64,000 nucleotides of DNA from a virus: positions 1-64,000 of IMG/VR virus record IMGVR_UViG_3300042558_005069. One strand, 5' to 3'. Under the pieces are notes generated by a model. That model saw only the letters and a program-made list of their open reading frames with translations, was not told where the DNA came from and searched no databases. The position numbers and the translations under genes were made by a program. Of this stretch, positions 63 to 57,048 are shown piece after piece. How positions within the stretch are numbered: position 1 is the first letter of the stretch; each line of letters begins with the position of its first letter.

Positions 63-100
63 ACTAAAGGATAATGCAGAGGGTTACATTATCCTTTAGT
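63..100. terminator. inverted ACTAAAGGATAATG / CATTATCCTTTAGT pair
   Basis: Two exact 14-bp arms (63-76 and 87-100) form a hairpin just past the stop of the leftward gene 109-573. The arms are members of the motif family found throughout the first 8.3 kb. There is no T-tract, so termination is inferred from position and from covariation at sister sites. Confidence 0.65.
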
Positions 101-108
101 AACAACCG

Positions 109-573
109 CTAACTAAATAGCGACTGAACTGCATCGGCTAGGGGACCACGACCTGAGTCGTCACCGCCCATAACCTCAACCTCGTTTAAGTCCTGAAATC
201 GGACAACGCTAGTTACTGAGTCGGCAGATGCACAGACAAGTAGGCGAACACGACGACGTGCTTCATGCTTGCTGGGTGCTGGCAAATCTTCATCGTTGCC
301 GTCGTAATTATCGGGCAATGGTGAAGCCCAACCAGTAGTTACCAATACGATACAGTCATACCATTTCGCTGCGAACCTCGCCCCATCGCTGGAGAGAAGA
401 TCGTAGATGTCCTCTGCTTCGGTCACTTGGTCAAATAGATGAACCTCATCGCCGTCTGTCTCTACACCAAAAAGCAACGGCTTCGCTAACTCAAAAGCCT
501 TATCTTCATTCTCACGAATGAGCAAATCGTGTATCTGTTGCTCAATGTTTTTGGAGATGTCTAGTGGTTTCAT
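109..573 (-). CDS. hypothetical acidic protein, 154 aa
   Basis: I do not recognise a named family. The protein is acidic, with a hydrophobic strand (IVLVTTGWASPLP, about residues 75-87) followed by an acidic loop and an Arg-rich strand (RRRVRLLV), a pattern that suggests a small mixed alpha/beta fold. The start is supported by AAAGGG 5-7 nt before the ATG. It is a single-gene unit with its own promoter (609-637) and a hairpin after the stop, like most genes of this region. Confidence 0.8.
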   Translation of the reverse strand: MKPLDISKNIEQQIHDLLIRENEDKAFELAKPLLFGVETDGDEVHLFDQVTEAEDIYDLLSSDGARFAAKWYDCIVLVTTGWASPLPDNYDGNDEDLPAPSKHEARRRVRLLVCASADSVTSVVRFQDLNEVEVMGGDDSGRGPLADAVQSLFS

Positions 574-608
574 ATTTCCCTTTCATATGTGTCGTTGGTG
601 ACATTCTT

Positions 609-637
609 ACTGTACCTCATAGGGGACAGATTAGCAA
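609..637 (-). promoter_or_regulatory. family promoter, TTGCTA-N17-TACAGT
   Basis: On the minus strand TTGCTA (-35) and TACAGT (-10) are 17 bp apart with the shared spacer start ATCTGT and end GG. It drives the gene at 109-573. A GATAATG box (642-648 on the plus map) ends 4 nt upstream of the -35. Confidence 0.75.
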
Positions 638-641
638 TTTG

Positions 642-655
642 CATTATCCTTTAGT
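642..655. repeat. CATTATCCTTTAGT motif
   Basis: Exact copy of the 14-bp motif, here upstream of the leftward promoter at 609-637 rather than at a gene end. Confidence 0.8.
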
Positions 656-752
656 AGTGGGGCTATCCGCCACCGTCAAAGATTAGGGGACAACGTGACT
701 CCGCTCAAAGTCACAGCCCTCTAGATGGTGAGAAACTTCTTTAATCGGATGA

Positions 753-844
753 CATTATCGCAACGCGCCCCCGACGATGAGTTGGCTGGAGTCTGGCTTG
801 GGGCGACGGACAGAGCCCCGCTGCTCACCGCTTCAGCCGGGGCT
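753..844. repeat. composite CATTATC/GCCCCCGAC + GCCCCG hairpin element
   Basis: CATTATCG-CAACGCGCCCCCGAC (753-775) is followed 38 nt later by an AGCCCCG...CGGGGCT hairpin (814-844). Related copies stand at 2673, 3374, 4059, 5851, 7051 and, degenerate, 8674. This one separates the divergent promoters at 609-637 and 868-896 and probably insulates them by termination. Confidence 0.7.
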
Positions 845-867
845 TCGTCCCGATAAAGGTCATTTAA

Positions 868-896
868 TCGCCAACCTGTCCCCGTAGTGGTACGTT
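868..896 (+). promoter_or_regulatory. family promoter, TCGCCA-N17-TACGTT
   Basis: TCGCCA and TACGTT at 17-bp spacing with the conserved spacer (CTGTCC...GG). Transcription should start near 903, which argues against the ATG at 901 and for the GTG at 940 as start of the next gene. Confidence 0.75.
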
Positions 897-939
897 GTGA
901 ATGTCGGCAGCGGGTCGGCACATACGGAGAGGGTACGAA

Positions 940-1161
940 GTGGAAAAATTGTCTTGCTTAGATTTTGGCAGTGGTGAGTGCGTAGGCGATGTGGAACTAT
1001 CCCTCGCACAGCCTGTGCGCTATCGCACGAACGGGGAATTCATCATGTTCCCTCGTTGCGAAAAGCACTGGGACGAATACGCAGATAGGGCTCAGGCTCG
1101 CCAGGAGCGCCAGTGGGCGGCAGAACGGGCAGAGCGTGACGAATGGGCGAACTTTGAGTGA
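940..1161 (+). CDS. small Cys-containing protein, 73 aa
   Basis: The protein has a CLDF-GSGEC pair near the N-terminus and PRCEKHWDEY followed by an Arg/Glu-rich helix (ARQERQWAAERAER). Small proteins of this shape, with PRCxKHWxxR, recur in actinobacteriophages; the three Cys plus His could bind a metal. I chose GTG 940 because GGAGAGGG lies 7 nt before it and because the upstream in-frame ATG at 901 falls at the predicted transcription start. Function unknown. Confidence 0.75.
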   Translation: MEKLSCLDFGSGECVGDVELSLAQPVRYRTNGEFIMFPRCEKHWDEYADRAQARQERQWAAERAERDEWANFE

Positions 1162-1176
1162 GTCGCGCCAAACTTT

Positions 1177-1211
1177 GCGAACGTGCCGAGAACGTCTCTC
1201 GGCACGTTCGC
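1177..1211 (+). terminator. perfect 15-bp terminator hairpin
   Basis: GCGAACGTGCCGAGA and its exact complement flank the loop ACGTC, 15 nt after the stop of 940-1161. TCTATTAG follows, so there is no true T-tract. Confidence 0.75.
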
Positions 1212-1227
1212 TCTATTAGTTTGATCA

Positions 1228-1260
1228 AAGCCCCGGCCGAGGGCGAGCTCAGCGGGGCTC
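1228..1260. terminator. GCCCCG/CGGGGC hairpin
   Basis: AAGCCCCG and CGGGGCT arms lie between the hairpin at 1177-1211 and the promoter at 1283. It is the same hairpin core as in the composite elements but lacks the CATTATC half. Confidence 0.6.
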
Positions 1261-1282
1261 CAACCGCATTCGCGTCATCTAA

Positions 1283-1311
1283 TCGCTAATCTGTCCCTGT
1301 CGTGGTATGTT
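1283..1311 (+). promoter_or_regulatory. family promoter, TCGCTA-N17-TATGTT
   Basis: TCGCTA and TATGTT are 17 bp apart; the spacer begins ATCTGTCCC and ends GG. It drives the gene starting at 1341 with a leader of about 25 nt. Confidence 0.8.
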
Positions 1312-1340
1312 GTGAATGTAGTCAAGCGAAAGGAAAAGTA

Positions 1341-1610
1341 ATGCAACAATCACATTCAAGAGTCACAGAGTTAGAGCTGGGGGCTCCCGTCGTAGTGGGG
1401 CATAGGCTCCTACTCTGGAAGCGTTCATTCTTCTACGCAAACCGTGTATCATACATTGTGTTCTGCAAAGCAGACCCCGATGAGGTTCACGGCTACGCTG
1501 TATGGCGAGTAGAGAAAAACGCTCACGGCGAATACTACGCCGAGACAGGCTACTACTTCGCCGAGTCCGATCTAGTCGAAGCCATACAGGCATACGACGC
1601 TAGAGATTAA
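1341..1610 (+). CDS. hypothetical protein, 89 aa, paralogue of 6663-6977
   Basis: The C-terminal half (YAVWRVEK...YYAETGYYF...AYDAR) matches the protein encoded at 6663-6977 (YVTWIISA...FLAEAGHYF...DYEAR) in order and spacing, so the two genes are paralogues. The fold looks like a small antiparallel beta-sheet followed by one helix. The ATG at 1341 is preceded by GAAAGGA at good spacing; an upstream GTG at 1302 lies inside the promoter and is rejected. Single-gene unit. Function unknown. Confidence 0.8.
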   Translation: MQQSHSRVTELELGAPVVVGHRLLLWKRSFFYANRVSYIVFCKADPDEVHGYAVWRVEKNAHGEYYAETGYYFAESDLVEAIQAYDARD

Positions 1611-1617
1611 CGAGTTA

Positions 1618-1673
1618 CATTATCCTTTAGTGTTAGCGGGGGGTTCGCCCCCCGCTTTACATTATCCTTTAGT
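1618..1673 (+). terminator. hairpin flanked by two CATTATCCTTTAGT copies
   Basis: GCGGGGGG-TTCG-CCCCCCGC (1636-1655) has an 8-bp G:C stem closed by a TTCG tetraloop and is bracketed by direct motif copies at 1618-1631 and 1660-1673. It follows the stop of 1341-1610. Confidence 0.75.
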
Positions 1674-1686
1674 GTTAAACCTCTTT

Positions 1687-1723
1687 CTAAAGGATAATGC
1701 AGGCGGTTACATTATCCTTTAGT
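1687..1723. terminator. inverted motif pair
   Basis: CTAAAGGATAATG (1687-1699) pairs with CATTATCCTTTAG (1710-1722). It lies at the 3' side of the leftward gene 1756-2259, so this convergent gene end carries separate structures for each direction. Confidence 0.65.
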
Positions 1724-1755
1724 AAGAAAAGCACTTTAGTCGTCGCCGTGTTTCG

Positions 1756-2259
1756 TTAAACTCGCTTTGCACATACTGGACCGATACCACGAGCGACACT
1801 TTTTGCATCGGTTAGGTCTGCTCCACAGACACAGCACATAGACATTTCTACGCCTAAGGCGGTGGCTCGCTCAACGGTCATTCTGTCGCTTGCGCTTAAT
1901 CTCTGAATACTTCCACGCTCGTACTCAAAGCGCTCACTTTTTGTTGATGCTGTCGGGATAAAACGCATAGCGTACAAGTTGCCCGTTTCACGGCTCTGCT
2001 TGACCCTGTAAATACCTTCGGGGGTCTCGTACATTCCCGTAACGGTCACGGGGTCGCTTGGTGCTGACACTCTTACTTGGTCATTTGCCATAGAGCGTTC
2101 TACTGCTTCTATTTGGCGAATTGTTAATGAACCATAACGCTCAAACTTAGAGAGTAGGTCTGCATAGAACGAACTACGCCCTGAGTTGATAACGCAAAAC
2201 TTTACTACTTTGAGAGTGCGTTCGTCGGGATTGTTATTCTCAATTTCTTTGATGTCCAT
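1756..2259 (-). CDS. DUF6011-type Cys-motif protein, 167 aa
   Basis: The C-terminus (CCVCGADLTDAKSVARGIGPVCAKR, here split: CCVCGADLTD, then a Ser/Ala turn, then GIGPVC) is the signature I associate with DUF6011, a short three-to-four Cys element often found at the end of phage proteins. The N-terminal part is helical and may bind DNA or protein. Start at 2259 because AAAGGGGC lies 4 nt before that ATG; the upstream ATG at 2274 overlaps this site. Own promoter at 2294-2322. Role unknown. Confidence 0.8.
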   Translation of the reverse strand: MDIKEIENNNPDERTLKVVKFCVINSGRSSFYADLLSKFERYGSLTIRQIEAVERSMANDQVRVSAPSDPVTVTGMYETPEGIYRVKQSRETGNLYAMRFIPTASTKSERFEYERGSIQRLSASDRMTVERATALGVEMSMCCVCGADLTDAKSVARGIGPVCAKRV

Positions 2260-2293
2260 TGTTGCCCCTTTCATGGGTGTAGTGGTTATTCAT

Positions 2294-2322
2294 ATTGTAC
2301 CTTATCGGGTACAGACTAGGGT
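2294..2322 (-). promoter_or_regulatory. family promoter with TGTACC-N6-GGTACA palindrome
   Basis: Minus-strand ACCCTA-N17-TACAAT. The spacer and -10 together form a perfect TGTACC-N6-GGTACA inverted repeat, the clearest example of the operator-like core shared by these promoters. GATAATG stands 7 nt upstream of the -35. Confidence 0.75.
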
Positions 2323-2329
2323 CGTTTTA

Positions 2330-2343
2330 CATTATCCTTTAGT
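2330..2343. repeat. CATTATCCTTTAGT motif
   Basis: Exact copy lying between the promoter at 2294-2322 and the end of the next leftward gene; the TAA of that gene falls inside the motif. Confidence 0.8.
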
Positions 2344-2536
2344 GTTCGGGGTCGTCTGTCTGATGTTCGGGATCGTCTGTCCCTGCTTCGTAGGCGTGCG
2401 AGAGCCAGCAAAATGATGCACAGACAGGGCATACGACTACCTGCGGATAGTTCACGAGAACTCCATGCTCGTCTAAAACCTGAGAGCGTGTGAGTGGGTG
2501 TAGGGAACGGCAGTGTGAAAAATAGTAAGTCTTCAT
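2339..2536 (-). CDS. small Cys/His protein, 65 aa
   Basis: The protein has an N-terminal FSHCRSLHPL and a later VCPVCASFCW, which together could bind zinc. The last residues TDDPEHQTDDPEH are a short duplication visible in the DNA (2340-2378). The ATG at 2536 has only a weak GAAGG 14 nt upstream and no family promoter is seen, so the gene is less certain than its neighbours. Its stop codon lies within a CATTATCCTTTAGT copy. Confidence 0.5.
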   Translation of the reverse strand: MKTYYFSHCRSLHPLTRSQVLDEHGVLVNYPQVVVCPVCASFCWLSHAYEAGTDDPEHQTDDPEH

Positions 2537-2672
2537 ATTACTTACGAGAAACCTTCGGTAAAAAGATGTCAAGGAAAAATGATTAAAACATTTCCTCAAG
2601 AACGTGACATCACGAAAGTTCCTTCCGCCACCGTCAATAATTTTGAGTCGTTCGGGGAACGCAGTAAATTTG

Positions 2673-2764
2673 CATTATCGCAACGCGCCCCCGACAGTGA
2701 TCCAGATTTTGCAAAAAACAGGAGCACGGACAAAGCCCCGCGTGAGACCGTTCCTGCCGGGGCT
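2673..2764. repeat. composite CATTATC/GCCCCCGAC + GCCCCG hairpin element
   Basis: CATTATCG-CAACGCGCCCCCGAC (2673-2695), then AGCCCCG...CGGGGCT (2734-2764). It precedes the rightward promoter at 2824-2852. Confidence 0.7.
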
Positions 2765-2823
2765 CTTTCGGATCATCCTCGAAAGCTGACTTTACGCGGC
2801 AATTCCGGGTTAGCGTCATTTAA

Positions 2824-2852
2824 TCGCCAATCTGTACCTAGCGAGGTATGCT
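2824..2852 (+). promoter_or_regulatory. family promoter, TCGCCA-N17-TATGCT
   Basis: TCGCCA and TATGCT are spaced by 17 bp with spacer ATCTGTACC...GG; it drives the gene at 2879. Confidence 0.8.
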
Positions 2853-2878
2853 GCAAGCAACCCAACGAAAGGAAAGTA

Positions 2879-3223
2879 ATGAGAAAAATCAACTATGACA
2901 CGATCACCGTTTTCGACGATTGCGCCGAAGCCGATGAGTGGGAAAAAGAAAACGACAGAGAATGGATCCCTGTCGGCTGCATTGACACCGAGATTCCCTA
3001 CCGCTGGGAAGGCTCACAAGCGAAGATAGAACTGCATGCTGACCTGAATCAGTACTGGTGCGATGGCACCGTTCCTGGGTCTACTCGTGACTGTCTCATC
3101 AAGGATTGGAAAGTGGTTGTTTGGAAAGACAAGAACAACGACAACGACTACGAACTCCACTACGCAGAAAACGAACAAGACGGCAATGAAATCCTAGAGA
3201 GTCTCGCTGTTACATTATCCTAG
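2879..3223 (+). CDS. hypothetical acidic protein, 114 aa
   Basis: An acidic single-domain protein rich in Asp, Glu, Trp and Asn (for example FDDCAEADEWEKEND and WKDKNNDNDYEL). No family recognised. The ATG at 2879 has GAAAGGAAAG just upstream, the same leader design as the gene at 1341; the frame is open for 100 more codons upstream but crosses the promoter and the composite element, so an earlier start is unlikely. The TAG stop lies inside a degenerate motif copy (3213-3226). Confidence 0.8.
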   Translation: MRKINYDTITVFDDCAEADEWEKENDREWIPVGCIDTEIPYRWEGSQAKIELHADLNQYWCDGTVPGSTRDCLIKDWKVVVWKDKNNDNDYELHYAENEQDGNEILESLAVTLS

Positions 3224-3235
3224 AGTATGTATTGA

Positions 3236-3280
3236 GGCTCGCTCCCGTGTGGGGGCGAGCCACTTACATTATCCTTTAGT
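3236..3280 (+). terminator. hairpin followed by CATTATCCTTTAGT
   Basis: GGCTCGCTCCC and GGGGGCGAGCC pair over 11 positions (one G-T) around GTGT (3236-3261), followed by a motif copy at 3267-3280. It follows the stop of 2879-3223. Confidence 0.7.
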
Positions 3281-3373
3281 GTTAGCGGCGAGCCTGACCC
3301 CGGGGGCTTTCCGCCACCGTCAAATAGTACAAGCAGGTATGACATCATTCTGAGCTCATGGCTGAAAGATGCA

Positions 3374-3464
3374 CATTATCTGAACACGCCCCCGATGACG
3401 CAAATAAAAAGTTTGACGCGAGAAGCCAGACAAAGCCCCGCGGCTCACCGCCTTCAGCGGGGCT
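3374..3464. repeat. composite CATTATC/GCCCCCGAT + GCCCCGC hairpin element
   Basis: CATTATCT-GAACACGCCCCCGAT, then AGCCCCGC...GCGGGGCT (3434-3464). This copy is between two convergent genes (ends 3223 and 3587), so it cannot serve as an adjacent promoter here. The 3224-3586 gap holds only these repeats. Confidence 0.7.
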
Positions 3465-3507
3465 TCGATGCTCGAGACTTTACATTATCCTTCAGTGAAA
3501 GAAGCTC

Positions 3508-3541
3508 GGGAATCCCAGCGCGGGGGCGCGCTGGGATTCCC
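3508..3541. terminator. perfect 15-bp hairpin
   Basis: GGGAATCCCAGCGCG with its exact complement around GGGG, preceded by a variant motif CATTATCCTTCAGT (3483-3496). Confidence 0.75.
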
Positions 3542-3544
3542 CTA

Positions 3545-3581
3545 ACCAAAGGATAATGTGGGGAGTACATTATCCTTTGGT
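3545..3581. terminator. inverted motif pair with compensatory change
   Basis: ACCAAAGGATAATG (3545-3558) pairs with CATTATCCTTTGGT (3568-3581). The usual ACT...AGT has become ACC...GGT in both arms, so pairing is kept. It ends 5 nt from the stop of the leftward gene 3587-4015. Confidence 0.75.
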
Positions 3582-3586
3582 GTTAA

Positions 3587-4015
3587 TCATTCAATCGGGA
3601 ACGACTGAGCCTTTTTGATTAGCACGAGTAGTAGCGATTCTCTAGTGGGGACTAGATCCCTAATGAGTTCTAACGTTTCCGTGTGAAACTGATTGAATGA
3701 CTTTTCACTGAAACGCGCAACGCCTACTTGGTTGTGAAACCTTGTAGACGGGAACTGCTGCACGTTGAATGGTTCCCAAATAGTGACGGTGAAACCGGCT
3801 GCGGGCTGCCACCAAAGCAAGCGCATAGTGGCGGTGTACTGTTTGCGCTTTGGGTCGTGGGTGAACTCTAGTTCTACTTGCTCGCCTGCCATTGAATTAG
3901 TGCCGCTGTATCGCTGATCTAGTACTGGCGATCGCCACACGTATTTAATGCTACGGTCACCAATGATCGGTTGTGGGAACTTCAGGGTAATTTCTGGGTT
4001 TTGGGTTGTAGTCAT
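3587..4015 (-). CDS. hypothetical protein, 142 aa
   Basis: I recognise no family. The protein alternates strands and aromatic turns (RLLWWQPAAGFTVTIWEPF) with a helical C-terminus ending in IKKAQSFPIE. The start at 4015 is the ATG 6 nt after the -10 box TACTCT, so the mRNA is probably leaderless; an in-frame TTG two codons earlier would fall upstream of the predicted transcript start. Own promoter and terminator. Confidence 0.75.
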   Translation of the reverse strand: MTTTQNPEITLKFPQPIIGDRSIKYVWRSPVLDQRYSGTNSMAGEQVELEFTHDPKRKQYTATMRLLWWQPAAGFTVTIWEPFNVQQFPSTRFHNQVGVARFSEKSFNQFHTETLELIRDLVPTRESLLLVLIKKAQSFPIE

Positions 4016-4021
4016 ACCCAA

Positions 4022-4050
4022 AGAGTACTAGCAAGGGTACAGATTAGTGA
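4022..4050 (-). promoter_or_regulatory. family promoter, leaderless
   Basis: Minus-strand TCACTA-N17-TACTCT with spacer ATCTGTACCC. The -10 ends 6 nt before the ATG of 3587-4015. GATAATG is 8 nt upstream of the -35. Confidence 0.75.
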
Positions 4051-4058
4051 ATGTTTGA

Positions 4059-4185
4059 CATTATCTCAGCACGCCCCCGACAGGTGAATGAGCAAGAGCA
4101 GGTTCAAGCCCCGCGGCCAGACGCTTGTAGCGGGGCTTCGATGTGAAACATTGTCAGTCTCGGTCGGGGGCGCATTTGGATAATG
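4059..4185. repeat. composite element flanked by an inverted copy
   Basis: The CATTATC...GCCCCCGAC box (4059-4081) and GCCCCGC hairpin (4107-4137) are followed by an inverted box reading GTCGGGGGCG...GATAATG (4163-4185). The outer boxes can pair, and each GATAATG points at a divergent promoter (4022-4050 and 4195-4223), 8 and 9 nt from the -35. Confidence 0.7.
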
Positions 4186-4194
4186 TTGCTTTAA

Positions 4195-4223
4195 TTAACA
4201 ATTTGATACTGACTAACTATAAT
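4195..4223 (+). promoter_or_regulatory. consensus promoter, TTAACA-N17-TATAAT
   Basis: Near-perfect sigma70-type boxes with 17-bp spacing; unlike its neighbours it lacks the CTGTACC spacer core. It drives the two-gene unit at 4258-4871. Confidence 0.85.
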
Positions 4224-4257
4224 GACAACGTAAGCAACTACTAGAAGGAGTACTACT

Positions 4258-4554
4258 GTGAACGATATTTATTGCCCAGTATGTGGCGAACCGTGGGACA
4301 ACGACACGCTACATGAATACGCCGAGGAATATGAAACAACCTATAGAGCGACCTACAAATTATTTTTTTCCGATGGTTGCGCTGTGGCGTTCAAAGAATG
4401 GGACATAGCGTGTGAACGCCCTGAGGGTGGTTCATCACGAGCCTTGTTTTCGTCATTGTTGGCAGAGATGCTAGGCGATGACGTGGACGGAATAATTAGC
4501 GAAATGCAGGACGCTGAGTTGCTTGGCTTACTGAACGACAATAGTAAAGGATAA
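4258..4554 (+). CDS. zinc-ribbon-like protein, 98 aa
   Basis: An N-terminal YCPVCGEPWD-NDTLHEY supplies a CxxC knuckle and His, and a later SDGCAVAF...C may complete the site; this is a small actinophage-type zinc protein of unknown role. GTG at 4258 is the start because AGAAGGAG lies 7 nt before it. It shares a transcript with the wHTH gene 5 nt downstream, whose ribosome site overlaps this gene's last codons. Confidence 0.8.
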   Translation: MNDIYCPVCGEPWDNDTLHEYAEEYETTYRATYKLFFSDGCAVAFKEWDIACERPEGGSSRALFSSLLAEMLGDDVDGIISEMQDAELLGLLNDNSKG

Positions 4555-4559
4555 TGTAA

Positions 4560-4871
4560 ATGCTAACAATAAACGAAAATAACCTATTATTGAACGGCGA
4601 TATTGTTGCCACGCTACCAAACACAAGCGCACGGCAAGTGCTATTACGCGCATTGCTTGAAAGCCTATCTAATCGCGATGGCGTATTTCTTGCGCTATCT
4701 CACTTAGGGGAAGCGCGTACTGCTGATATCGCTCATCTTGTTGGCATAGATAGGTCAAATGCTGGCAGGGTTCTAGACAGCCTATTGTTAGAGGGAATGG
4801 TAAAGGTAGTAAACGATTGCAATAAGGCTGGAACGGTAGGGCGACCATCTAGGGTTTGGGCGACCGTTTAA
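4560..4871 (+). CDS. winged-helix regulator, 103 aa
   Basis: Residues about 40-100 read LSHLGEARTADIAHLVGIDRSN...VLDSLLLEGMVKVV...VGRPSRVW, the layout of a MarR/ArsR-like winged helix (helix-turn-helix, then a wing with GRPS). It is probably a DNA-binding transcription factor acting on phage or host promoters; the conserved promoter family of this region is an obvious candidate target (inference). AAAGGA 9 nt upstream of ATG 4560. Second gene of an operon with 4258-4554. Confidence 0.75.
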   Translation: MLTINENNLLLNGDIVATLPNTSARQVLLRALLESLSNRDGVFLALSHLGEARTADIAHLVGIDRSNAGRVLDSLLLEGMVKVVNDCNKAGTVGRPSRVWATV

Positions 4872-4935
4872 CATTATCCTTTAGTGTGTGCGCGTCTATA
4901 TTGGCGCGCACACACTTGAACACTAAAGGATAATG
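4872..4935. terminator. nested bidirectional terminator
   Basis: CATTATCCTTTAGT (4872-4885) and its inverse (4922-4935) enclose an inner stem GTGTGTGCGCG / CGCGCACACAC (4884-4915). It sits between the convergent genes ending at 4871 and 4954 and can fold identically from either strand. Confidence 0.8.
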
Positions 4936-4953
4936 TAAAGAGTACGAAAACTA

Positions 4954-5424
4954 TTATTCGCTCATCGGGTTTGGGGCAATTTCTCCGAATACAGCCTCGT
5001 ACATTTCTCGCCCTGCTTTCCACTCGTCCCACGACCCGTCAGATGAGACACGGATACACGACCCGTAAATAACCTTTGCTCTTATTAGTGAGGCGGTTAC
5101 TACTGCGTCGTATGGCTTGTAAGCCGTTTTGCAAAATGAGAAATGGTCGGGCTCATCTTTGCGCCACTCGGGTTGAGTCGGGATAGCGTCCCACCAAAAC
5201 GACTCGTGCCCATTGTCGCCGTTTTCATCGCTCACGCCATTAAATGCGAAATAACCCTCAGTACACACGGGCTGAGTGTTGGGTGCACCAAACGCGTCAC
5301 CTAGTGCAATTCCGTTTTCTTGTGCATAATCGCAAATTGCTTTTACGTCTAGTCCCAATTTGCCAAACATATAAGCCGACCCTGCGTTATTCATTGGTCG
5401 CGAAACATAGTGCGTATAGCCCAT
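4954..5424 (-). CDS. MGYTHY-type conserved phage protein, 156 aa
   Basis: The N-terminus MGYTHYVSRP is a recognisable hallmark of a widespread but uncharacterised family in phages. The body is Trp-, Asp- and Asn-rich with SFWWDAIP and ends in a helix. AAGGAG stands 7 nt before ATG 5424. Own promoter at 5455-5483 and the shared bidirectional terminator at 4872-4935. Function unknown. Confidence 0.85.
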   Translation of the reverse strand: MGYTHYVSRPMNNAGSAYMFGKLGLDVKAICDYAQENGIALGDAFGAPNTQPVCTEGYFAFNGVSDENGDNGHESFWWDAIPTQPEWRKDEPDHFSFCKTAYKPYDAVVTASLIRAKVIYGSCIRVSSDGSWDEWKAGREMYEAVFGEIAPNPMSE

Positions 5425-5454
5425 TTCTTTTCTCCTTGTCTAGTAGTTATTATT

Positions 5455-5483
5455 AGATTACTTTACGATATTCAGACTAGCGA
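5455..5483 (-). promoter_or_regulatory. family promoter, TCGCTA-N17-TAATCT
   Basis: Minus-strand boxes at 17 bp; spacer GTCTGAATATCG differs from the CTGTACC type and is shared with 5814-5842. GATAATG lies 8 nt upstream of the -35, within an exact motif copy at 5492-5505. Confidence 0.75.
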
Positions 5484-5511
5484 TTAAATTACATTATCCT
5501 TTAGTGATAGT

Positions 5512-5784
5512 TCACAAGTCAGGGTTGAACCAACCCCAAGAACCATCAACGTTAATTACTACGTCCTCGGGCGCTAGGCAGTTGATTAGCGGAACAGCAG
5601 TACTATTCCAACTCCATGTAAAGTTTGGCTTTAGCGAAATATCGCAAATGGGTTTAGTTTCTCTATTGTCGCTTGTGATTAGTAACGTGGCAAGAACGAC
5701 GACAACGGAAGTCGCCAATCCCCATACTATTATTCTTACGAAAGTGCGTAGCGTGTAGTAAGCAGATGACTTTTCATTGTTCAT
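5512..5784 (-). CDS. single-pass membrane protein, 90 aa
   Basis: Residues about 13-37 (a stretch around IIVWGLATSVVVVLATLLIT) form one membrane helix preceded by Arg, so the short N-terminus is probably cytoplasmic and the C-terminal 50 residues, with two Cys, face outward. AAAGGGGAAAG precedes ATG 5784. Own promoter at 5814-5842. It may be a phage membrane or superinfection factor, but nothing proves that. Confidence 0.75.
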   Translation of the reverse strand: MNNEKSSAYYTLRTFVRIIVWGLATSVVVVLATLLITSDNRETKPICDISLKPNFTWSWNSTAVPLINCLAPEDVVINVDGSWGWFNPDL

Positions 5785-5813
5785 ACTTTCCCCTTTTTCT
5801 AGTAGTTGTTATT

Positions 5814-5842
5814 AGACTACTTGACGCTATTCAGACTAGCGA
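5814..5842 (-). promoter_or_regulatory. family promoter, TCGCTA-N17-TAGTCT
   Basis: Minus-strand boxes at 17 bp, nearly identical to 5455-5483 over 35 bp, followed by the same AT-rich leader. GATAATG is 8 nt upstream of the -35. Confidence 0.75.
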
Positions 5843-5850
5843 TTAAATGA

Positions 5851-5932
5851 CATTATCTCAACACGCCCCCGACAAGAACAAGCGTGAGAGGTTTCAGCTT
5901 AAGCCCCGCAGGCCAGCCTGTCCCCCGGGGCT
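5851..5932. repeat. composite CATTATC/GCCCCCGAC + GCCCCG hairpin element
   Basis: CATTATCT-CAACACGCCCCCGAC (5851-5873) and AGCCCCG...CGGGGCT (5902-5932), upstream of the leftward promoter at 5814 and downstream of the gene ending at 6033. Confidence 0.7.
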
Positions 5933-5978
5933 CCTACCGGATTCAGCCACAAGCGCATGACTCGAAATTGGCAAGCGC

Positions 5979-6022
5979 CGTTACTAAAGGATGATGCCGG
6001 ATTACATCATCCTTTAGTAACG
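5979..6022. terminator. 18-bp perfect hairpin, motif variant
   Basis: CGTTACTAAAGGATGATG and its exact complement around an 8-nt loop. The usual ATAATG/CATTAT is ATGATG/CATCAT here, changed in both arms, so pairing is preserved. It follows the stop of 6033-6452 on the minus strand. Confidence 0.8.
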
Positions 6023-6032
6023 ATTGCTCCTA

Positions 6033-6452
6033 CTAGAGTCCCCGTTCCCTGCGCTGTTGTTCTGTCACAGGGCGCAACGTTGTCTCGCTGCCGGTTGGGG
6101 CATCGTGGTGAGATAGTGAGTATTCAACTCGGTCGGAATAAACCTCATAGTGCATGCGCCATTCACTTCTGACTGTCATGGCTATAAGCATTTCTTCAAC
6201 TTTGTCTACCTTGAAATGTCCGGATATATCGCCGTTCCAAAGTCGCAAATTCTCAACGGACCACCAATCAGTTTCGTTGCTGTGGCGTAGTTCCATTGTT
6301 GCCTCTCCGAACTCGGCTACTGAGTCGCTCCAGCAATAACCAAAACACTCGGATGCTTCTTTATAGTCTCCGGTGTTTTCGTCATAGGCGGTGCAAGTGC
6401 ATAGGTTGGTTATTTCTCCGGCTGTGATGAGTGTTTTTTTGGTTGTTGTCAT
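6033..6452 (-). CDS. hypothetical protein, 139 aa
   Basis: No family recognised. The N-terminal half carries four Cys (NLCTCTAYD and ECFGYCW), followed by a Trp-rich section and a charged C-terminus (EQQRRERGL). ATG 6452 lies 6 nt after the -10 box TAAATT with no Shine-Dalgarno sequence, so it is probably translated from a leaderless mRNA. Own promoter and terminator. Confidence 0.75.
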   Translation of the reverse strand: MTTTKKTLITAGEITNLCTCTAYDENTGDYKEASECFGYCWSDSVAEFGEATMELRHSNETDWWSVENLRLWNGDISGHFKVDKVEEMLIAMTVRSEWRMHYEVYSDRVEYSLSHHDAPTGSETTLRPVTEQQRRERGL

Positions 6453-6458
6453 GTCTTC

Positions 6459-6487
6459 AATTTACCATTGAGGGTACAAACTAGCGT
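6459..6487 (-). promoter_or_regulatory. family promoter, leaderless
   Basis: Minus-strand ACGCTA-N17-TAAATT, spacer GTTTGTACCC. The -10 ends 6 nt before the ATG of 6033-6452. GATAATG (motif copy 6493-6506) is 5 nt upstream of the -35. Confidence 0.75.
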
Positions 6488-6501
6488 TTTTGCATTATCC
6501 T

Positions 6502-6657
6502 TTAGTAATGTTCTTTTCTCCAAATTTGCAAAACTTCTTTTTTCGTGTAATACAAGTAAAAGTGATAAGGGTAGTCATGAGTCCCATCACAGGGCAAGCG
6601 ATAAAACCCCGTTTTTGTTTTTTCTATACTTTTTAGTGTTGGTGTAATTTTTGGCAT
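6502..6657 (-). CDS. small basic protein, 51 aa
   Basis: Reads MPKITPTLKSIEKTKTGFYR...YHFYLYYTKKEVLQIW. It begins 5 nt after the stop of 6663-6977 with GGTGAG as ribosome site, and its TAA lies inside the CATTATCCTTTAGT copy at 6493-6506, like other genes here. The C-terminus YTKKEVLQIW resembles an amphipathic helix. Probably the second gene of a two-gene unit. Function unknown. Confidence 0.7.
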   Translation of the reverse strand: MPKITPTLKSIEKTKTGFYRLPCDGTHDYPYHFYLYYTKKEVLQIWRKEHY

Positions 6658-6662
6658 TGCGC

Positions 6663-6977
6663 TCACCAACCTCCCCGAGCCTCATAGTCTCCAACTGAAC
6701 GCTCAATTTCATTTGACAGAAAATAGTGTCCTGCCTCTGCAAGAAAACCCTCAGGGCGAGCGGAAATAATCCACGTCACGTACTTGTGATATGACCCCCT
6801 ATTGTTGGACTCACAGAGTGCAATCCAACTAGAGTAAGTATCCCCAATAACTCTCTCCGTGAGACGCTTGCAACGCAATACGGTGTGATCGGAAATGGAC
6901 ATACCTTTTGCAAGTAAGTTGAATTCTGCTTGTGTCTGCCCGTTGTGATCGTTAATTGTTTCTAATTCTGTTTGCAT
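6663..6977 (-). CDS. hypothetical protein, 104 aa, paralogue of 1341-1610
   Basis: C-terminal YVTWIISA...EAGHYFLSNEIERSVGDYEARGG aligns with the protein of 1341-1610 without gaps, showing an old duplication within the region. The start at 6977 is chosen because CTAGGAG lies 6 nt before it; an upstream codon at 6992 overlaps that site. It is first in a unit with 6502-6657. Function unknown. Confidence 0.8.
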   Translation of the reverse strand: MQTELETINDHNGQTQAEFNLLAKGMSISDHTVLRCKRLTERVIGDTYSSWIALCESNNRGSYHKYVTWIISARPEGFLAEAGHYFLSNEIERSVGDYEARGGW

Positions 6978-7013
6978 TTTTTCTCCTAGCAATTGGTAGT
7001 AGGTGTTGTTAGT

Positions 7014-7042
7014 AACGTACCTTGCAGGTAACAGGCTAACTA
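7014..7042 (-). promoter_or_regulatory. family promoter, TAGTTA-N17-TACGTT
   Basis: Minus-strand boxes at 17 bp with CCTGTTACC...GG spacer; drives 6977. GATAATG is 8 nt upstream of the -35. Confidence 0.7.
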
Positions 7043-7050
7043 TAAATAAA

Positions 7051-7132
7051 CATTATCGCAACACGCCCCCGATATGATCAGTCTGCGAGCCGGAGGGGAG
7101 AAGCCCCGCGTGGGGCGTGCGAAGCCGGGGCT
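7051..7132. repeat. composite CATTATC/GCCCCCGAT + GCCCCG hairpin element
   Basis: CATTATCG-CAACACGCCCCCGAT (7051-7073), then AGCCCCG...CGGGGCT (7102-7132). A variant motif CATTATCCTTGAGT follows at 7150-7163, close to the stop of the gene 7179-7511. Confidence 0.7.
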
Positions 7133-7178
7133 TTAATGCTCGACAACAGCATTATCCTTGAGTGTCGGCGAGCGGCGC

Positions 7179-7511
7179 TTACCCGTGCCAGTTTTCAGAC
7201 CGCTCTATGAAGTTGCGCAAACTTTCCTCGTCGGTCATTTTTTCTTTCTCGCCTTCTTCGATAATCCAACCGAAAACGTCCTGACGTATGGCGCATCGTT
7301 CTTCTACTGCTTTCACAGCTTGAGCGGGCGTGAGTGCCTTTTCGCCAAAACCACGCAACCCGGCGTCCCATTCCCAACCGAACGACTCAACAAGATCGGC
7401 ATCGTCGTAGCACTCGTAGAGCTCTGACTCAAAAAGGTTCTGGGGGTCGCTGTAGAGCGGCATTGCTTTAATTGCGGCGACTATTTCGTCGTGTTGTGGG
7501 TGAGTTTTCAT
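7179..7511 (-). CDS. hypothetical acidic protein, 110 aa
   Basis: A helical, acidic protein (YECYDDADLVESFGWEWD; GWIIEEGEKEKMTDEES) without recognisable motifs. AAAAGGAGAAAG precedes ATG 7511. It is the second gene of a unit with 7538-7834, 26 nt apart, under the promoter at 7876-7904. Confidence 0.75.
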   Translation of the reverse strand: MKTHPQHDEIVAAIKAMPLYSDPQNLFESELYECYDDADLVESFGWEWDAGLRGFGEKALTPAQAVKAVEERCAIRQDVFGWIIEEGEKEKMTDEESLRNFIERSENWHG

Positions 7512-7537
7512 TTCTTTCTCCTTTTGTTTGGGTTTGT

Positions 7538-7834
7538 TTAATAATTCATTTTGTCAAAAGCGGCGGCGGCGCCTTTAGCCATTGCGTCTTGACGAAAGGC
7601 ATAGGTCGTGTCAAACGCAACCCGCAGAACATTCCGGTGAAGTACTGAGATCTCCTCTTTTTCCAGAACGTCGTAATTTGCATTGTCGCCATACTCGCAC
7701 TCAAGCACGACTGCCACGCTGTGCTTTGTGAGCACGCTTTTAACCTTGACGAACTTAATTTCGCCATTCACTTTTGCGGCGAAAACTACTTTTTTGTTTT
7801 TGTCAATAGCGGCGCCGATGTCCCATACCTTCAT
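7538..7834 (-). CDS. hypothetical protein, 98 aa
   Basis: N-terminal two thirds are alternating hydrophobic strands with charged turns (KKVVFAAKVNGEIKFVKVKSV; SVAVVLECEY), suggesting a small beta-barrel; the C-terminus is an Ala-rich helix. AAGGAG 8 nt before ATG 7834. First gene of the unit with 7179-7511. Function unknown. Confidence 0.75.
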   Translation of the reverse strand: MKVWDIGAAIDKNKKVVFAAKVNGEIKFVKVKSVLTKHSVAVVLECEYGDNANYDVLEKEEISVLHRNVLRVAFDTTYAFRQDAMAKGAAAAFDKMNY

Positions 7835-7875
7835 GTTCTTGTCTCCTTGTGTGTGTTGTTCCTGCCGATGACTTA

Positions 7876-7904
7876 AAAATACCAGCAGGGGTACAGATTA
7901 GCGA
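7876..7904 (-). promoter_or_regulatory. family promoter, TCGCTA-N17-TATTTT
   Basis: Minus-strand boxes at 17 bp, spacer ATCTGTACC...GG. Drives 7834. Confidence 0.75.
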
Positions 7905-7933
7905 AAAAGCTACCCTAATCAGGTTGAGGCGAG

Positions 7934-7974
7934 GCGAACAAGCCCCGGCTTCGTCCGCGCTCAGCGGGGCTCGC
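7934..7974. terminator. GCCCCG hairpin between divergent promoters
   Basis: GCGA...AGCCCCG pairs with CGGGGCT...TCGC. It lies between the divergent promoters at 7876-7904 and 7995-8023. Confidence 0.6.
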
Positions 7975-7994
7975 ATGGGGTTGGTGTTCTTTTA

Positions 7995-8023
7995 TCGCTA
8001 ATCTGTACCTGTCATGACAGAAT
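7995..8023 (+). promoter_or_regulatory. family promoter, TCGCTA-N17-CAGAAT
   Basis: Boxes at 17 bp with spacer ATCTGTACCTGTCATGA; the -10 is the weakest of the family. Drives 8063. Confidence 0.65.
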
Positions 8024-8062
8024 AGGAACACGGGGGAAACGCCCTCGGGATTAGGGGAGATT

Positions 8063-8254
8063 ATGCCACTCTGGAAACAAAGAACAGAAGTAGACAAGGG
8101 CTACAAAGACATCGTGCTGAGGGAATTGGGAATAGAACAAGACCCCAAAGACTGGGAGCGCTCAAATTGGGTGATCTTTTTGTTGTGCGCTGGTTTTGAC
8201 ATAGAAACGATTACAAGGTTTCTAGCAGACGACGGTCGCTTCGTTTACGACTAA
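8063..8254 (+). CDS. small protein, 63 aa
   Basis: Contains a hydrophobic NWVIFLLCAGFDIETITRFL segment after a charged N-terminus; it looks like a helical pair more than a membrane anchor because of the internal Asp/Glu. AGGGGAG is 4-5 nt before ATG 8063. Single-gene unit ending in the terminator at 8278. Function unknown. Confidence 0.7.
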   Translation: MPLWKQRTEVDKGYKDIVLRELGIEQDPKDWERSNWVIFLLCAGFDIETITRFLADDGRFVYD

Positions 8255-8600: not shown

Positions 8601-8673
8601 AGTTAGTGTTTCCTCTCTTTATCCTTTAGAGGTTGCTTACCTCTGCTGATCGGACATTCAATAGAAAGAAAAA

Positions 8674-8760
8674 CATCATCGCAATGTTCCCCCGAGTGCG
8701 TGATGCATCCACTTCACGACAAAGCCCCGCTGTAAACCGGCCCTAACGGGTCTCCATGCT
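8674..8760. repeat. degenerate composite element
   Basis: CATCATCG-CAATGTTCCCCCGAG then AAGCCCCGC with a decayed right arm (AACGGGTCT). This is the last and most eroded copy of the family; the stop of 8743-9264 falls inside it. Confidence 0.5.
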
Positions 8761-19612: not shown

Positions 19613-21073
19613 TTAAGATCCAATGATTAGGGGAATGTTCGGATTGTTTGTTTTCCAGCATTCTGCATCTTCCATGTCATTCAAAAGAGGTTGATTTTTT
19701 ATATTTAAACTAGTGTTTATGAGCACGGGAATTCCGGTTAAATTTTTCCACTTAGTCAAAACGGCGTGAAGGCCGGGATGTTGATCCTTGGATACCGTTT
19801 GAACTCTGCTTGTGCCGTCTACGTGCACTGCACCGGGTATTAAATTTGGTTTCTTGGCGCGTACGGCAAGCTGCATATATGGACTCATGGCGGGAAGATC
19901 AAACCATTCATTTGCGTCTTCTTCGAGGACCACTGGAGCGAATGGCCTAAATTTCTCCCTCATTTTTATCAAATTAACATTGTCGCGTGACGCTACGGAA
20001 CGAGGGTCCGCAAGGAGGCTCCTATTTCCTAGCGCCCTGGGTCCAAATTCGGCTCTGCCGTTCATTACTCCTACGACGCCAGTGTTAATTAACTCTTTTA
20101 TTACTTTTTCTACAGGGTAATGCCCCCCAATATTTTTACCTAAATACGGACCGCGCCATTCCACATGTTTTGCGTAGACTGAAAGCGCAGCTCCCAGACT
20201 TGAACCTGAATCTCCAGGGTTGGGCATTATCCATACCTTTTCAAATATGTTGTAGAGAATCGGATTTGCTGCACAATTTAATGCACAGCCGCCCATGTAA
20301 ACAAGATTTTTAGATTTGGTTAACCTCTGAGCAAAATTCATAATTTCACCGAGACGTTTCTCGAATACAGCCTGAGCTGCTGCGGCGATATCAAAAATAT
20401 CGTTTTCGTCTCGTATTGATCGTTCGGATAAAAGCTTTTTATGAAAACTCATTGTCTGAACATTGTGGGCCGGAAAAAATGCATCAAGGTTACCCTCGTA
20501 TTTTGTTTTGTCCCCATAGGCGGCCATTGCCATGAGAATGTATTCGTCGCGCCCTGGTTCTAGTCCAACGTAGTCGGTTATGAAACTATAAAAAAGACCA
20601 AATGATGTCGGGTATCTGAGACTCCAGATTTTTTTTATTTTGCCGTTTTGGCACGACCATATGCTGGCAGTCTCGAATTCCCCAATCGCATCGATCACAA
20701 CCGTGACGGCTTCATTAAAAGGCGAAGTAAGGAACCCAGCGCTTGCGTGGCTCCTGTGGTGACTTACCTGAATCTCTTTTATGCCTTGAAGTTCTTTGCC
20801 AAAAATTTTGTTTTTATATAGATTCGCAGCGTACTTTCCATTTTTTCCACCATGAAGAAACATGCGTAGTCTTTTTTTATTACGCTTCTCAAAGTAAGCA
20901 ATTTTATCAGGAACTCCAAATTCCAAAGCTTCATCCAATATTTGTTTATTCAAAGAAAAATCATTTTTAATTTTACTGTAACGCTCGGCGTGCGCTGCAA
21001 ATAGAATTTTGCCATTTTTTATCACGGACACAGATGCATCATGCGATGAGTCGTTGATTCCGAGAATATGCAT
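19613..21073 (-). CDS. carbamoyltransferase (NodU/TobZ/CmcH family), 486 aa
   Basis: N-terminal ASKHA-like half starts ILGINDSSHDAS and has the metal-binding SHHRSHA (104-110) and D128; later come GGCALNC (about 261-267) and the C-terminal YrdC-like-to-Kae1-like signature RAEFGPRALGNRSLLADPR (about 343-361) with KFRPFAPVV. These proteins transfer carbamoyl from carbamoyl phosphate via carbamoyl-AMP to a sugar or other hydroxyl. The C-terminus is slightly short for the family. It lies 2 nt after the SGNH gene, in one operon, so the two may modify the same glycan or nucleoside. Confidence 0.93.
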   Translation of the reverse strand: MHILGINDSSHDASVSVIKNGKILFAAHAERYSKIKNDFSLNKQILDEALEFGVPDKIAYFEKRNKKRLRMFLHGGKNGKYAANLYKNKIFGKELQGIKEIQVSHHRSHASAGFLTSPFNEAVTVVIDAIGEFETASIWSCQNGKIKKIWSLRYPTSFGLFYSFITDYVGLEPGRDEYILMAMAAYGDKTKYEGNLDAFFPAHNVQTMSFHKKLLSERSIRDENDIFDIAAAAQAVFEKRLGEIMNFAQRLTKSKNLVYMGGCALNCAANPILYNIFEKVWIMPNPGDSGSSLGAALSVYAKHVEWRGPYLGKNIGGHYPVEKVIKELINTGVVGVMNGRAEFGPRALGNRSLLADPRSVASRDNVNLIKMREKFRPFAPVVLEEDANEWFDLPAMSPYMQLAVRAKKPNLIPGAVHVDGTSRVQTVSKDQHPGLHAVLTKWKNLTGIPVLINTSLNIKNQPLLNDMEDAECWKTNNPNIPLIIGS

Positions 21074-51107: not shown

Positions 51108-51445
51108 CTCGCATCTCGCAATCTTGGAATCACTGGATCAAATGGCTCTCTTTGAACCATGAGAATATTGTGTCGTTTTCTTAATAGTTTGCGCTCACGC
51201 TCCGTGGTTCCGCCCCAGATGCCAAAAATTTCATGATACAGCGCATAATTTAAACACGGATCGATTTGCTTGCAGTCACTGCATATCGCTTTTGCTAAGT
51301 TCGTTTGCTCATTTGCTTTTCGATACTGGACAGAGAAATCTCTTCCCTTGCTTCTTTCCGCATGAGGAAACCACATTTTTACATCTTTACCGATGCAGTC
51401 GCCTCCAGTTGGGGGTGTATCGATCCGTTCGTGTGTTGGTCTCAT
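51104..51445 (-). CDS. whiB: WhiB-family iron-sulfur regulator, 113 aa
   Basis: C17, then C55-x2-C58-x5-C64 (ICSDCKQIDPC) bind a [4Fe-4S] cluster; GIWGGTTERER (75-85) is the WhiB turn that contacts sigma factor. WhiB proteins occur only in actinobacteria and their phages, so this fixes the host phylum. AGGAGGGG precedes ATG 51445. Position in the replication operon suggests that it retunes host sigma-A promoters during infection. Confidence 0.95.
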   Translation of the reverse strand: MRPTHERIDTPPTGGDCIGKDVKMWFPHAERSKGRDFSVQYRKANEQTNLAKAICSDCKQIDPCLNYALYHEIFGIWGGTTERERKLLRKRHNILMVQREPFDPVIPRLRDAR

Positions 51446-56649: not shown

Positions 56650-57048
56650 TTATTTAAACTCGGACCAAGTTTTGTTTCCAACCCCAAAGTACTCTCGAGC
56701 GTAACCTGACTCTATGATATCCAAATTCAAGCAAGCAGTTTTTACATCATCAATGTCTTCTGAGGAAAATATCCTTGCGAGAACCCGTCCGTATTTGTCA
56801 TTTTTGTCTGGGATTGTATTCACGTAAACCCATTTATGCTTGGAAATCCAGTCTTCTGTGAATTTCTTTGCGCTCAGACCCATCTGCTTTTCGGCTAGGT
56901 CTTTTGTTCTTGTCTCGGGCGTGTTGACGCCATATAGGCGAACTCTAATTTTGTGGTGAATATTGAAACCAAGATCAATCATTAGATCGACAGTGTCTCC
57001 GTCTACAACCCTCAGTACGGTAGCTCCGTACCAAAAGCGAGCACTCAT
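56650..57048 (-). CDS. staphylococcal-nuclease-like thermonuclease, 132 aa
   Basis: VVDGDTVDLMIDLG with D16/D18/D21, then RVRLYGVNTPE (catalytic R37, E45) and DKYGRVLARI (R88): the three catalytic residues of the SNase fold are in place. Ca-dependent DNA/RNA hydrolysis; in a phage it may degrade host DNA or act in the virion. No signal peptide. Overlaps the dioxygenase gene by one base (TAATG). Confidence 0.93.
   Translation of the reverse strand: MSARFWYGATVLRVVDGDTVDLMIDLGFNIHHKIRVRLYGVNTPETRTKDLAEKQMGLSAKKFTEDWISKHKWVYVNTIPDKNDKYGRVLARIFSSEDIDDVKTACLNLDIIESGYAREYFGVGNKTWSEFK

What the first reader, a model, noticed from the sequence alone, without database searches (positions are those of the whole stretch)
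600..8030. Thirteen look-alike promoters with an operator-like spacer
At 609-637, 868-896, 1283-1311, 2294-2322, 2824-2852, 4022-4050, 4195-4223, 5455-5483, 5814-5842, 6459-6487, 7014-7042, 7876-7904 and 7995-8023 the two boxes are exactly 17 bp apart; the 4195 promoter matches only in spacing. In most others the spacer itself is conserved as CTGTACC-N6-GG and with TA of the -10 makes a GTACC/GGTAC inverted repeat (perfect at 2297-2310). A spacer normally varies, so this suggests one repressor or activator that controls the whole region as a regulon; the wHTH protein at 4560-4871 is a candidate.
Basis: seen in the sequence. Interest (0 to 1): 0.72.

Follow-up and report, generated by a model that had tools for sequence, protein, structure and literature searches.

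The report
Phage-wide promoters with a switchable word
A freshwater virus of actinobacteria starts about twenty small genes from near-identical promoters carrying one shared 15-base word, and closely related viruses use a completely different word in all of theirs at once, which points to a fast-changing, still unidentified protein that reads the word and controls the whole region.

Summary
Twelve of the 13 sites are one motif, oriented T(C/T)GCTARTCTGTACC-N8-TANNNT; the 4195 site is an ordinary sigma70 promoter. An overlapping contig adds 13 kb to the left. A matrix built on the 12 window sites finds seven more sites there, and no further site above chance level in the remaining 96 kb. All 19 lie just upstream of a start codon, three or four in leaderless geometry, so they are promoters. 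The palindrome is weak: one perfect site and no covariation. The proposed wHTH regulator is missing from five large relatives that carry the same promoters.

The larger finding: related WhiB-carrying freshwater phages have the same architecture with different words. Each lineage repeats its own 14-20 bp word across the -35 and spacer, at fixed distance from TANNNT, in 5 to about 50 promoters. Phages with 95-98% identical neighbouring proteins use unrelated words. Six DNA-binding proteins tested do not track the words.

Best reading: a region-wide regulon whose promoters are recognised by host sigma-A polymerase together with a lineage-specific phage DNA-binding protein, most likely an activator like T4 MotA, less likely a repressor.

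The parts
609..637 (-). motif promoter TTGCTAATCTGTCCCCTATGAGGTACAGT, upstream of gene 109-573(-)
868..896 (+). motif promoter TCGCCAACCTGTCCCCGTAGTGGTACGTT, ORF 901-1161 or its internal GTG start; possibly leaderless (ATG 4 nt after the -10)
1283..1311 (+). motif promoter TCGCTAATCTGTCCCTGTCGTGGTATGTT, gene from ATG at about 1341
2294..2322 (-). motif promoter ACCCTAGTCTGTACCCGATAAGGTACAAT, the only perfect GTACC-N6-GGTAC dyad (2297-2312); gene 1756-2274(-)
2824..2852 (+). motif promoter TCGCCAATCTGTACCTAGCGAGGTATGCT, gene from ATG at about 2879 to 3223
4022..4050 (-). motif promoter TCACTAATCTGTACCCTTGCTAGTACTCT; leaderless geometry, ATG 6 nt after the -10; gene 3587-4015(-)
4195..4223 (+). 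motif-free sigma70-like promoter TTAACA-17-TATAAT, upstream of ORFs 4258-4554 and 4560-4871; not a member of the motif family
5455..5483 (-). divergent motif promoter TCGCTAGTCTGAATATCGTAAAGTAATCT; gene 4954-5424(-)
5814..5842 (-). divergent motif promoter TCGCTAGTCTGAATAGCGTCAAGTAGTCT, sister of the 5455 site; gene 5512-5784(-)
6459..6487 (-). motif promoter ACGCTAGTTTGTACCCTCAATGGTAAATT; leaderless geometry, ATG 6 nt after the -10; gene 6033-6452(-)
7014..7042 (-). weakest motif promoter TAGTTAGCCTGTTACCTGCAAGGTACGTT; gene 6663-6992(-)
7876..7904 (-). motif promoter TCGCTAATCTGTACCCCTGCTGGTATTTT (best match); gene 7538-7834(-)
7995..8023 (+). motif promoter TCGCTAATCTGTACCTGTCATGACAGAAT; gene 8063-8254(+)
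4560..4871 (+).

Best explanation
The 12 sites, with seven more in the adjoining 13 kb, are promoters of one regulon of small genes in a large WhiB-carrying freshwater actinophage. Host sigma-A RNA polymerase reads the (often extended) -10, TGNTANNNT. A phage-encoded DNA-binding protein reads the 15-bp word at -35 to -21 that replaces or embeds the -35 box, and bridges to polymerase, as MotA does at T4 middle promoters. Each lineage has its own matching pair of word and reader, and the pair can switch wholesale. Shown by sequence: the promoters, the shared word, its fixed distance to the -10, its confinement to one region, and its replacement by other words in sister phages. Inferred: the reader protein, its phage origin, its activating role and the timing.
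For: All 19 sites have a start codon in the right orientation shortly after the -10, with a Shine-Dalgarno or at leaderless distance. The word predicts unseen sites and is confined to one region. It is far more conserved than sigma70 needs; in our phage it does not match TTGACA (TCGCTA, 3 of 6), and a TTG is also missing in L135, as if the word stands in for the -35. Ten lineages show a 14-20 bp word at one strict distance from TANNNT: 12/12, 49/52, 23/23, 37/37, 30/30, 33/37, 15/15, 5/5, 15/15 and 11/11, with near-random flanks and 0-4 hits in reversed controls. Strict distance to the -10 fits an element used together with polymerase. T4 middle promoters have a MotA box centred at -30 that replaces the -35, plus a -10, in about half extended (PMC6755090). 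No integrase or serine recombinase was found in 14 records, so lysogenic repression is not the obvious need.
Against: No reader gene was found. XRE, WhiB, the conserved winged-helix protein and two HTH proteins keep their DNA-binding segments between phages with different words. An activator offers no obvious reason for frequent wholesale switching, whereas repressor immunity does. Most other lineages keep a TTG at -35, so their promoters may work without an activator. Nearly all promoters of the region carry the word, so an activator would need another source for its first synthesis.
Confidence: 0.47

Rival explanations
1. The word is the operator of a lineage-specific repressor (early-gene shut-off or superinfection immunity), bound across the -35 and spacer of every promoter of the region, in the manner of Cluster A mycobacteriophage repressors.
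For: Cluster A repressors bind 20-30 asymmetric 13-14-bp sites as monomers, some inside promoters, and site sets differ between related phages (PMC6550527; PMC9283540). Immunity escape is a natural driver for the wholesale word switching seen among 95-98% relatives. The word covers spacer positions that sigma does not contact.
Against: Cluster A sites are mostly away from promoters; here the words sit at a fixed distance from a -10. No integrase or serine recombinase in 14 records. No cognate repressor was found.
Confidence: 0.33
2. The conserved XRE (Cro/CI-type) protein of the array (L092:8021-8305:-) represses the promoters through the GTACC-N6-GGTAC dyad, including its own promoter, which carries GAACC-TGTGTA-GGTAC.
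For: Present in all six near-complete relatives with the CTGTACC word and not detected in four large contigs without it. Dyad-like consensus. The upstream sequence of XRE has TTGTGA-17-TACAGT with the dyad.
Against: Its recognition helix is nearly invariant while the words differ: G029 and G031 differ in word, but their XRE HTH is almost identical, and it is also present in G047 and G030, which lack the CTGTACC pattern. Lineages without XRE also have words (G055, G057). Dyad without covariation.
Confidence: 0.08
3. A phage-encoded or host alternative sigma factor reads word and -10 as one promoter.
For: Fixed register of word and TANNNT.
Against: The -10 is a normal, often extended sigma-A element. 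No Sigma70_r4 match over the cut-off in the 104-kb record; the HA/HTH protein with a weak r4-like tail keeps its HTH between lineages with different words.
Confidence: 0.06
4. A phage RNA polymerase (N4-, P23-45- or T7-type) reads the word.
For: Giant phage proteins of 2524-4564 aa exist and could hide domains; P23-45 hides a polymerase in its tape measure protein (PMC10770324).
Against: No catalytic DxDGD context in ORFs of 120 aa or more, no polymerase match, and a canonical bacterial -10 at the right distance from leaderless ATGs.
Confidence: 0.02
5. The words are homogenised by recombination between repeated intergenic cassettes and carry no reader.
For: The region has high gene turnover between sisters.
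Against: Conservation stops sharply at both ends of the word; the 6-9 bp to the -10 and the upstream DNA are free to vary, which conversion tracts would not spare.
Confidence: 0.04

Closest known systems
T4 middle promoters (MotA box, AsiA/MotA sigma appropriation)
   Same: Many promoters of non-structural genes with a shared box near -30 at near-fixed distance from a host sigma70 -10, extended in many
   Different: T4 uses one short box; here the word is 14-20 bp, extends to about -21, often still contains TTG, and differs completely between close relatives.
Cluster A mycobacteriophage operators/stoperators (L5, Bxb1 repressors)
   Same: Actinophage; asymmetric lineage-specific words in tens of copies; related phages differ in word
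   Different: There most sites are not at promoters, the phages are temperate and the repressor is known. Here the promoter words sit at fixed distance from the -10 and no integrase is seen. A second, A-type word in our phage group resembles stoperators more
Thermus phage P23-45 phage-polymerase promoters
   Same: A conserved phage promoter word shared by a group of early genes
   Different: P23-45 words are read by phage RNA polymerases; none was recognised here and the -10 is bacterial
Halovirus HF2 intergenic repeats carrying promoters
   Same: Repeated intergenic units that are promoters (title and abstract only)
   Different: Archaeal virus with archaeal promoters; the paper was not read in detail

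Membership tests
sigma-A (sigma70) dependent bacterial promoters | TANNNT -10 at proper distance upstream of start | tested here: met
   T, A and final T of TANNNT invariant in nearly all 19 sites; start codon after every site, 3-4 leaderless
sigma-A (sigma70) dependent bacterial promoters | TTGACA-like -35 at 16-18 bp | tested here: not met
   Ours TCGCTA (3 of 6); a TTG is present in most other lineage words
T4-type middle promoters (MotA/AsiA) | Activator box near -30 replacing the -35 at near-fixed distance from the -10 | tested here: met
   Word at -35 to -21, fixed distance to the -10 in each lineage; similarity of layout only, activation not shown
T4-type middle promoters (MotA/AsiA) | MotA and AsiA homologues encoded | tested here: inconclusive
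   No hit named MotA or AsiA among the proteins scanned, but not every ORF was scanned
Cluster A-type repressor operator system | Asymmetric sites, many copies, lineage-specific | tested here: met
Cluster A-type repressor operator system | Most sites not promoter-associated | tested here: not met
   All 19 sites of our phage precede genes at promoter distance; in other lineages words occur with a TANNNT at fixed distance
Cluster A-type repressor operator system | Temperate, integrase or par functions, known repressor gene | tested here: inconclusive
   No PF00589 or PF00239 match in 14 records; a ParA-like gene is in the array and ParB-like genes elsewhere; records may be incomplete
   No covariation in 12, 19 or 53 sites
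Regulon of the 4560-4871 wHTH protein | Regulator present wherever its sites are | tested here: not met
   Not detected in G007, G009, G016, G021, G035, which have the promoters
Phage-encoded RNA polymerase promoters | RNA polymerase gene in the phage | tested here: inconclusive
   No DxDGD context or family hit, but the two contigs do not cover the whole genome

The most novel reading that the evidence does not exclude
A promoter-recognition system in virulent actinophages in which a phage-encoded activator and its 14-20-bp word at 20-50 promoters are exchanged as a matched set between close relatives, so that whole regulons are rewired at once, a kind of transcriptional immunity group in lytic phages.
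Probability: 0.3. Interest if true: 0.85.

Novelty: new variant of a known kind. Interest (0 to 1): 0.66.

Why it matters
Here at least ten distinct words, each at 5 to about 50 promoters, occur in one phage group, including phages with 95-98% identical neighbouring proteins. This is a natural experiment on how a transcription factor and all its sites co-evolve. It would also lead to a transcription-control protein of the abundant, mostly uncultured freshwater actinophages, and could explain incompatibility between co-infecting phages.

Tried and rejected
wHTH 4560-4871 as reader. XRE as reader: co-occurs with the word but its helix does not change with it. Conserved winged-helix protein next to the MoxR-like ATPase (predicted H-E-H-H-E-E C-terminus; no confident PDB fold match): helix identical or nearly so in lineages with unrelated words. 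WhiB: C-terminus nearly invariant. HTH-210 and HA/HTH proteins: HTH identical between G029 and G031. G029-only HTH gene and three HTH-like genes of G055: not found in most other lineages. Phage polymerase: no signature. A-word as part of the promoter word: only L110 (three promoters) and, by eye, L097/L102 overlap. The L102 word could not be confirmed as repeated. Nucleotide search of known phages gave nothing; no Rfam hit.
Full report
WHAT WAS CHECKED. The window is bases 1-64000 of a 104,099-base virus record. Once oriented, 12 of 13 units form one family: TCGCTARTCTGTACC, about eight variable bases ending in (A/T)GG, then TANNNT. An overlapping contig (G045 = IMGVR_UViG_3300042402_005289) is 100% identical over 17,102 bases and carries the array 13 kb further left. 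The first 21 window bases (poly-C/poly-G) do not match it.

IS IT MORE THAN CHANCE? A matrix built from the 12 window sites, with variable columns switched off, was scanned over the merged 117 kb. It found the 12 and seven new sites at G045 6025, 7967, 9496, 11043, 11587, 11846 and 12884. Four score 19-31 bits; 6025 and 9496 score 13-14 and 12884 scores 9.9, within the range of the best random hits (8-18 bits), so those three rest on their position in front of a gene. Everything else in 117 kb scores below 9 bits. The pattern count in the window is 12 against 2.2 in shuffles.

ARE THEY PROMOTERS? At all 19 sites a start codon follows the -10 in the right orientation, most with a Shine-Dalgarno and 26-43 bp on (the 7967 site precedes a short ORF below the length cut-off of that script). 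Two window sites (4022, 6459) and G045:11846 have ATG 5-6 nt after the -10, the geometry of leaderless transcripts that start at the A of ATG (868 is a possible fourth). Leaderless mRNAs are common in Actinobacteria (own knowledge). The phage group encodes WhiB proteins (PF02467, E = 3.8e-15; a WhiB-like stretch lies at window 51164-51379 on the minus strand), so the host is probably an actinobacterium. Freshwater whiB actinophages are a known group (PMC10914622).

THE PALINDROME. Only the 2294 site is a perfect 5+5 dyad. In 12, 19 and 53 sites the observed complementarity equals what the column compositions give (p = 0.41, 0.59, 0.69), and changes in the left arm are did not complete in the right arm, whose TA is fixed by the -10. 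The consensus is dyad-like, which may be real or may be coincidence.

RELATED PHAGES. A MoxR-like ATPase of the array (L092:5259-5984:-) brought in 80 related loci, reduced to 39 lineages. About ten lineages share CTGTACC-N5-TGGTANNNT, with a different -35 box in each (TTGTAG, TGGCTA, TTGGAA, TGGGAA and others) and with TG of the extended -10 in 89-94% of 53 sites. Aligning the stretch upstream of the ATPase in the other lineages showed the same layout with different words.

THE WORDS. One search gives the numbers (word; sites; hits in the reversed sequence). Ours, CTGTMCC core: 12; 0. G055 TTGTCGGTTAGGGGTGGG: 52; 3. G057 TTGTAAGYCGTCCGTA: 23; 2. G056 TTGTTGGGTTGGGTAAG: 37; 0. G029 TTGTAAATCTGATAT: 30; 0. 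G031 TTGGAAATTTGGTAT: 37; 4. L142 TTGAGATAGGTTGCA: 15; 0. L153 CCTGTTGACCATAG: 5; 0. L161 TTGTTACTCGTCCGTA: 15; 0. L135 AGAATATTCTGTCTGTC: 11; 0. In each lineage the distance from word end to TA is constant in nearly all sites, the word columns are near-invariant, and the columns on both sides are near-random. These counts allowed several mismatches (none for ours) and required TANNNT 5-9 bp on; the reversed controls show the background.

WHOLESALE SWITCHING. The ATPases of L151 (G055), L153, L154 (G056), L161 and L164 (G057) are 95-98% identical, yet the words are different (those of L161 and L164 are similar but not the same). G029 and G031 are 96-99% identical in long proteins such as ribonucleotide reductase (98.8%) and the VWA protein (96.6%), and about 30 promoters differ between them in the same three word positions. 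Selection by a matching reader is the simplest cause. Recombination would drag flanks along, which is not seen.

WHO READS THE WORD? Not the 4560 wHTH. XRE occurs in all six large relatives with the CTGTACC word and was not detected in four without it, but it is nearly unchanged between G029 and G031 and is also present where the word differs. The conserved winged-helix protein next to the ATPase (L092:6384-6863:-, predicted C-terminal H-E-H-H-E-E), WhiB, HTH-210 and the HA/HTH protein keep their DNA-binding segments across words. G029 and G031 differ in only three word positions, so for that pair a few substitutions could be enough; the exclusion rests mainly on the L151/L153/L154/L161/L164 set, where XRE was not found at all in G055, G056 or G057.

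MECHANISM. Step 1, host sigma-A binds the -10: well supported by sequence. Step 2, a protein binds the word: strongly implied by 14-20 near-invariant bases. Step 3, it is phage-encoded: implied by switching between close relatives. Step 4, it activates: favoured by the fixed distance to the -10, by a non-sigma -35 in our phage and in L135, and by the T4 middle-promoter precedent, but not shown. The motif-free strong promoter at 4195 would fit a gene made before the regulator acts, but the gene behind it is not conserved. A repressor (Cluster A style) remains a close rival because immunity would explain the switching; the absence of integrase and serine recombinase in 14 records speaks mildly against it.

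LIMITS. All sequences are metagenomic contigs, some partial. There are no transcripts. Lineage counts reflect IMG/VR sampling. Host assignment rests on WhiB alone.

Noticed in passing
window 63-104, 642-655, 1618-1723, 2330, 3267, 4872-4935, 5492, 6493, 8313: A second lineage-specific word, ACTAAAGGATAATGTAA in ours (47 copies in 22 kb, 36:11 strand bias), often in hairpins between convergent genes or just upstream of the -35. Related lineages have their own version (CTAATAGATAACT, AGAGTAGATAACT, AGGTGTAGGTAAGTC). It looks like stoperators or terminator parts.
   Followed up: partly
window near 671, 2625, 3313; most relatives: Word CCGCCACCGTCAA (TTGACGGTGGTGGA) recurs with nearly unchanged sequence in most lineages of the group, unlike the other words.
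   Followed up: no
window about 755-830, 2681-2760, 3370-3470, 4062-4140, 5851-5930, 7060-7135, 8670-8750: Repeated element of about 100 bp, CATTATCNCAACACGCCCCCGAC...AAGCCCCGC-N-GCGGGGCT, mostly in one orientation; no Rfam match.
   Followed up: partly
window 34593-48287(-); L090:1210-8784(-); L090:10635-19979(-): Giant polyvalent proteins of 4564, 2524 and 3114 aa; domains found include exonuclease, ParB-like, GNAT, anti-restriction and prohead-protease-like.
   Followed up: partly
L092:5259-5984(-) and L092:3724-5259(-): MoxR-like ATPase and VWA-like protein pair, a conserved marker of the array in 30-34 lineages.
   Followed up: partly
L235:12746-13096(-): 116-aa HTH-like gene present only in the G029 word group, at a place where G031 has no gene.
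   Followed up: partly
window 57048-58043(-), 19613-21073(-), L091:9369-10499(+): Auxiliary genes: TauD-like dioxygenase, Nol-like carbamoyltransferase, PAPS reductase.
   Followed up: no
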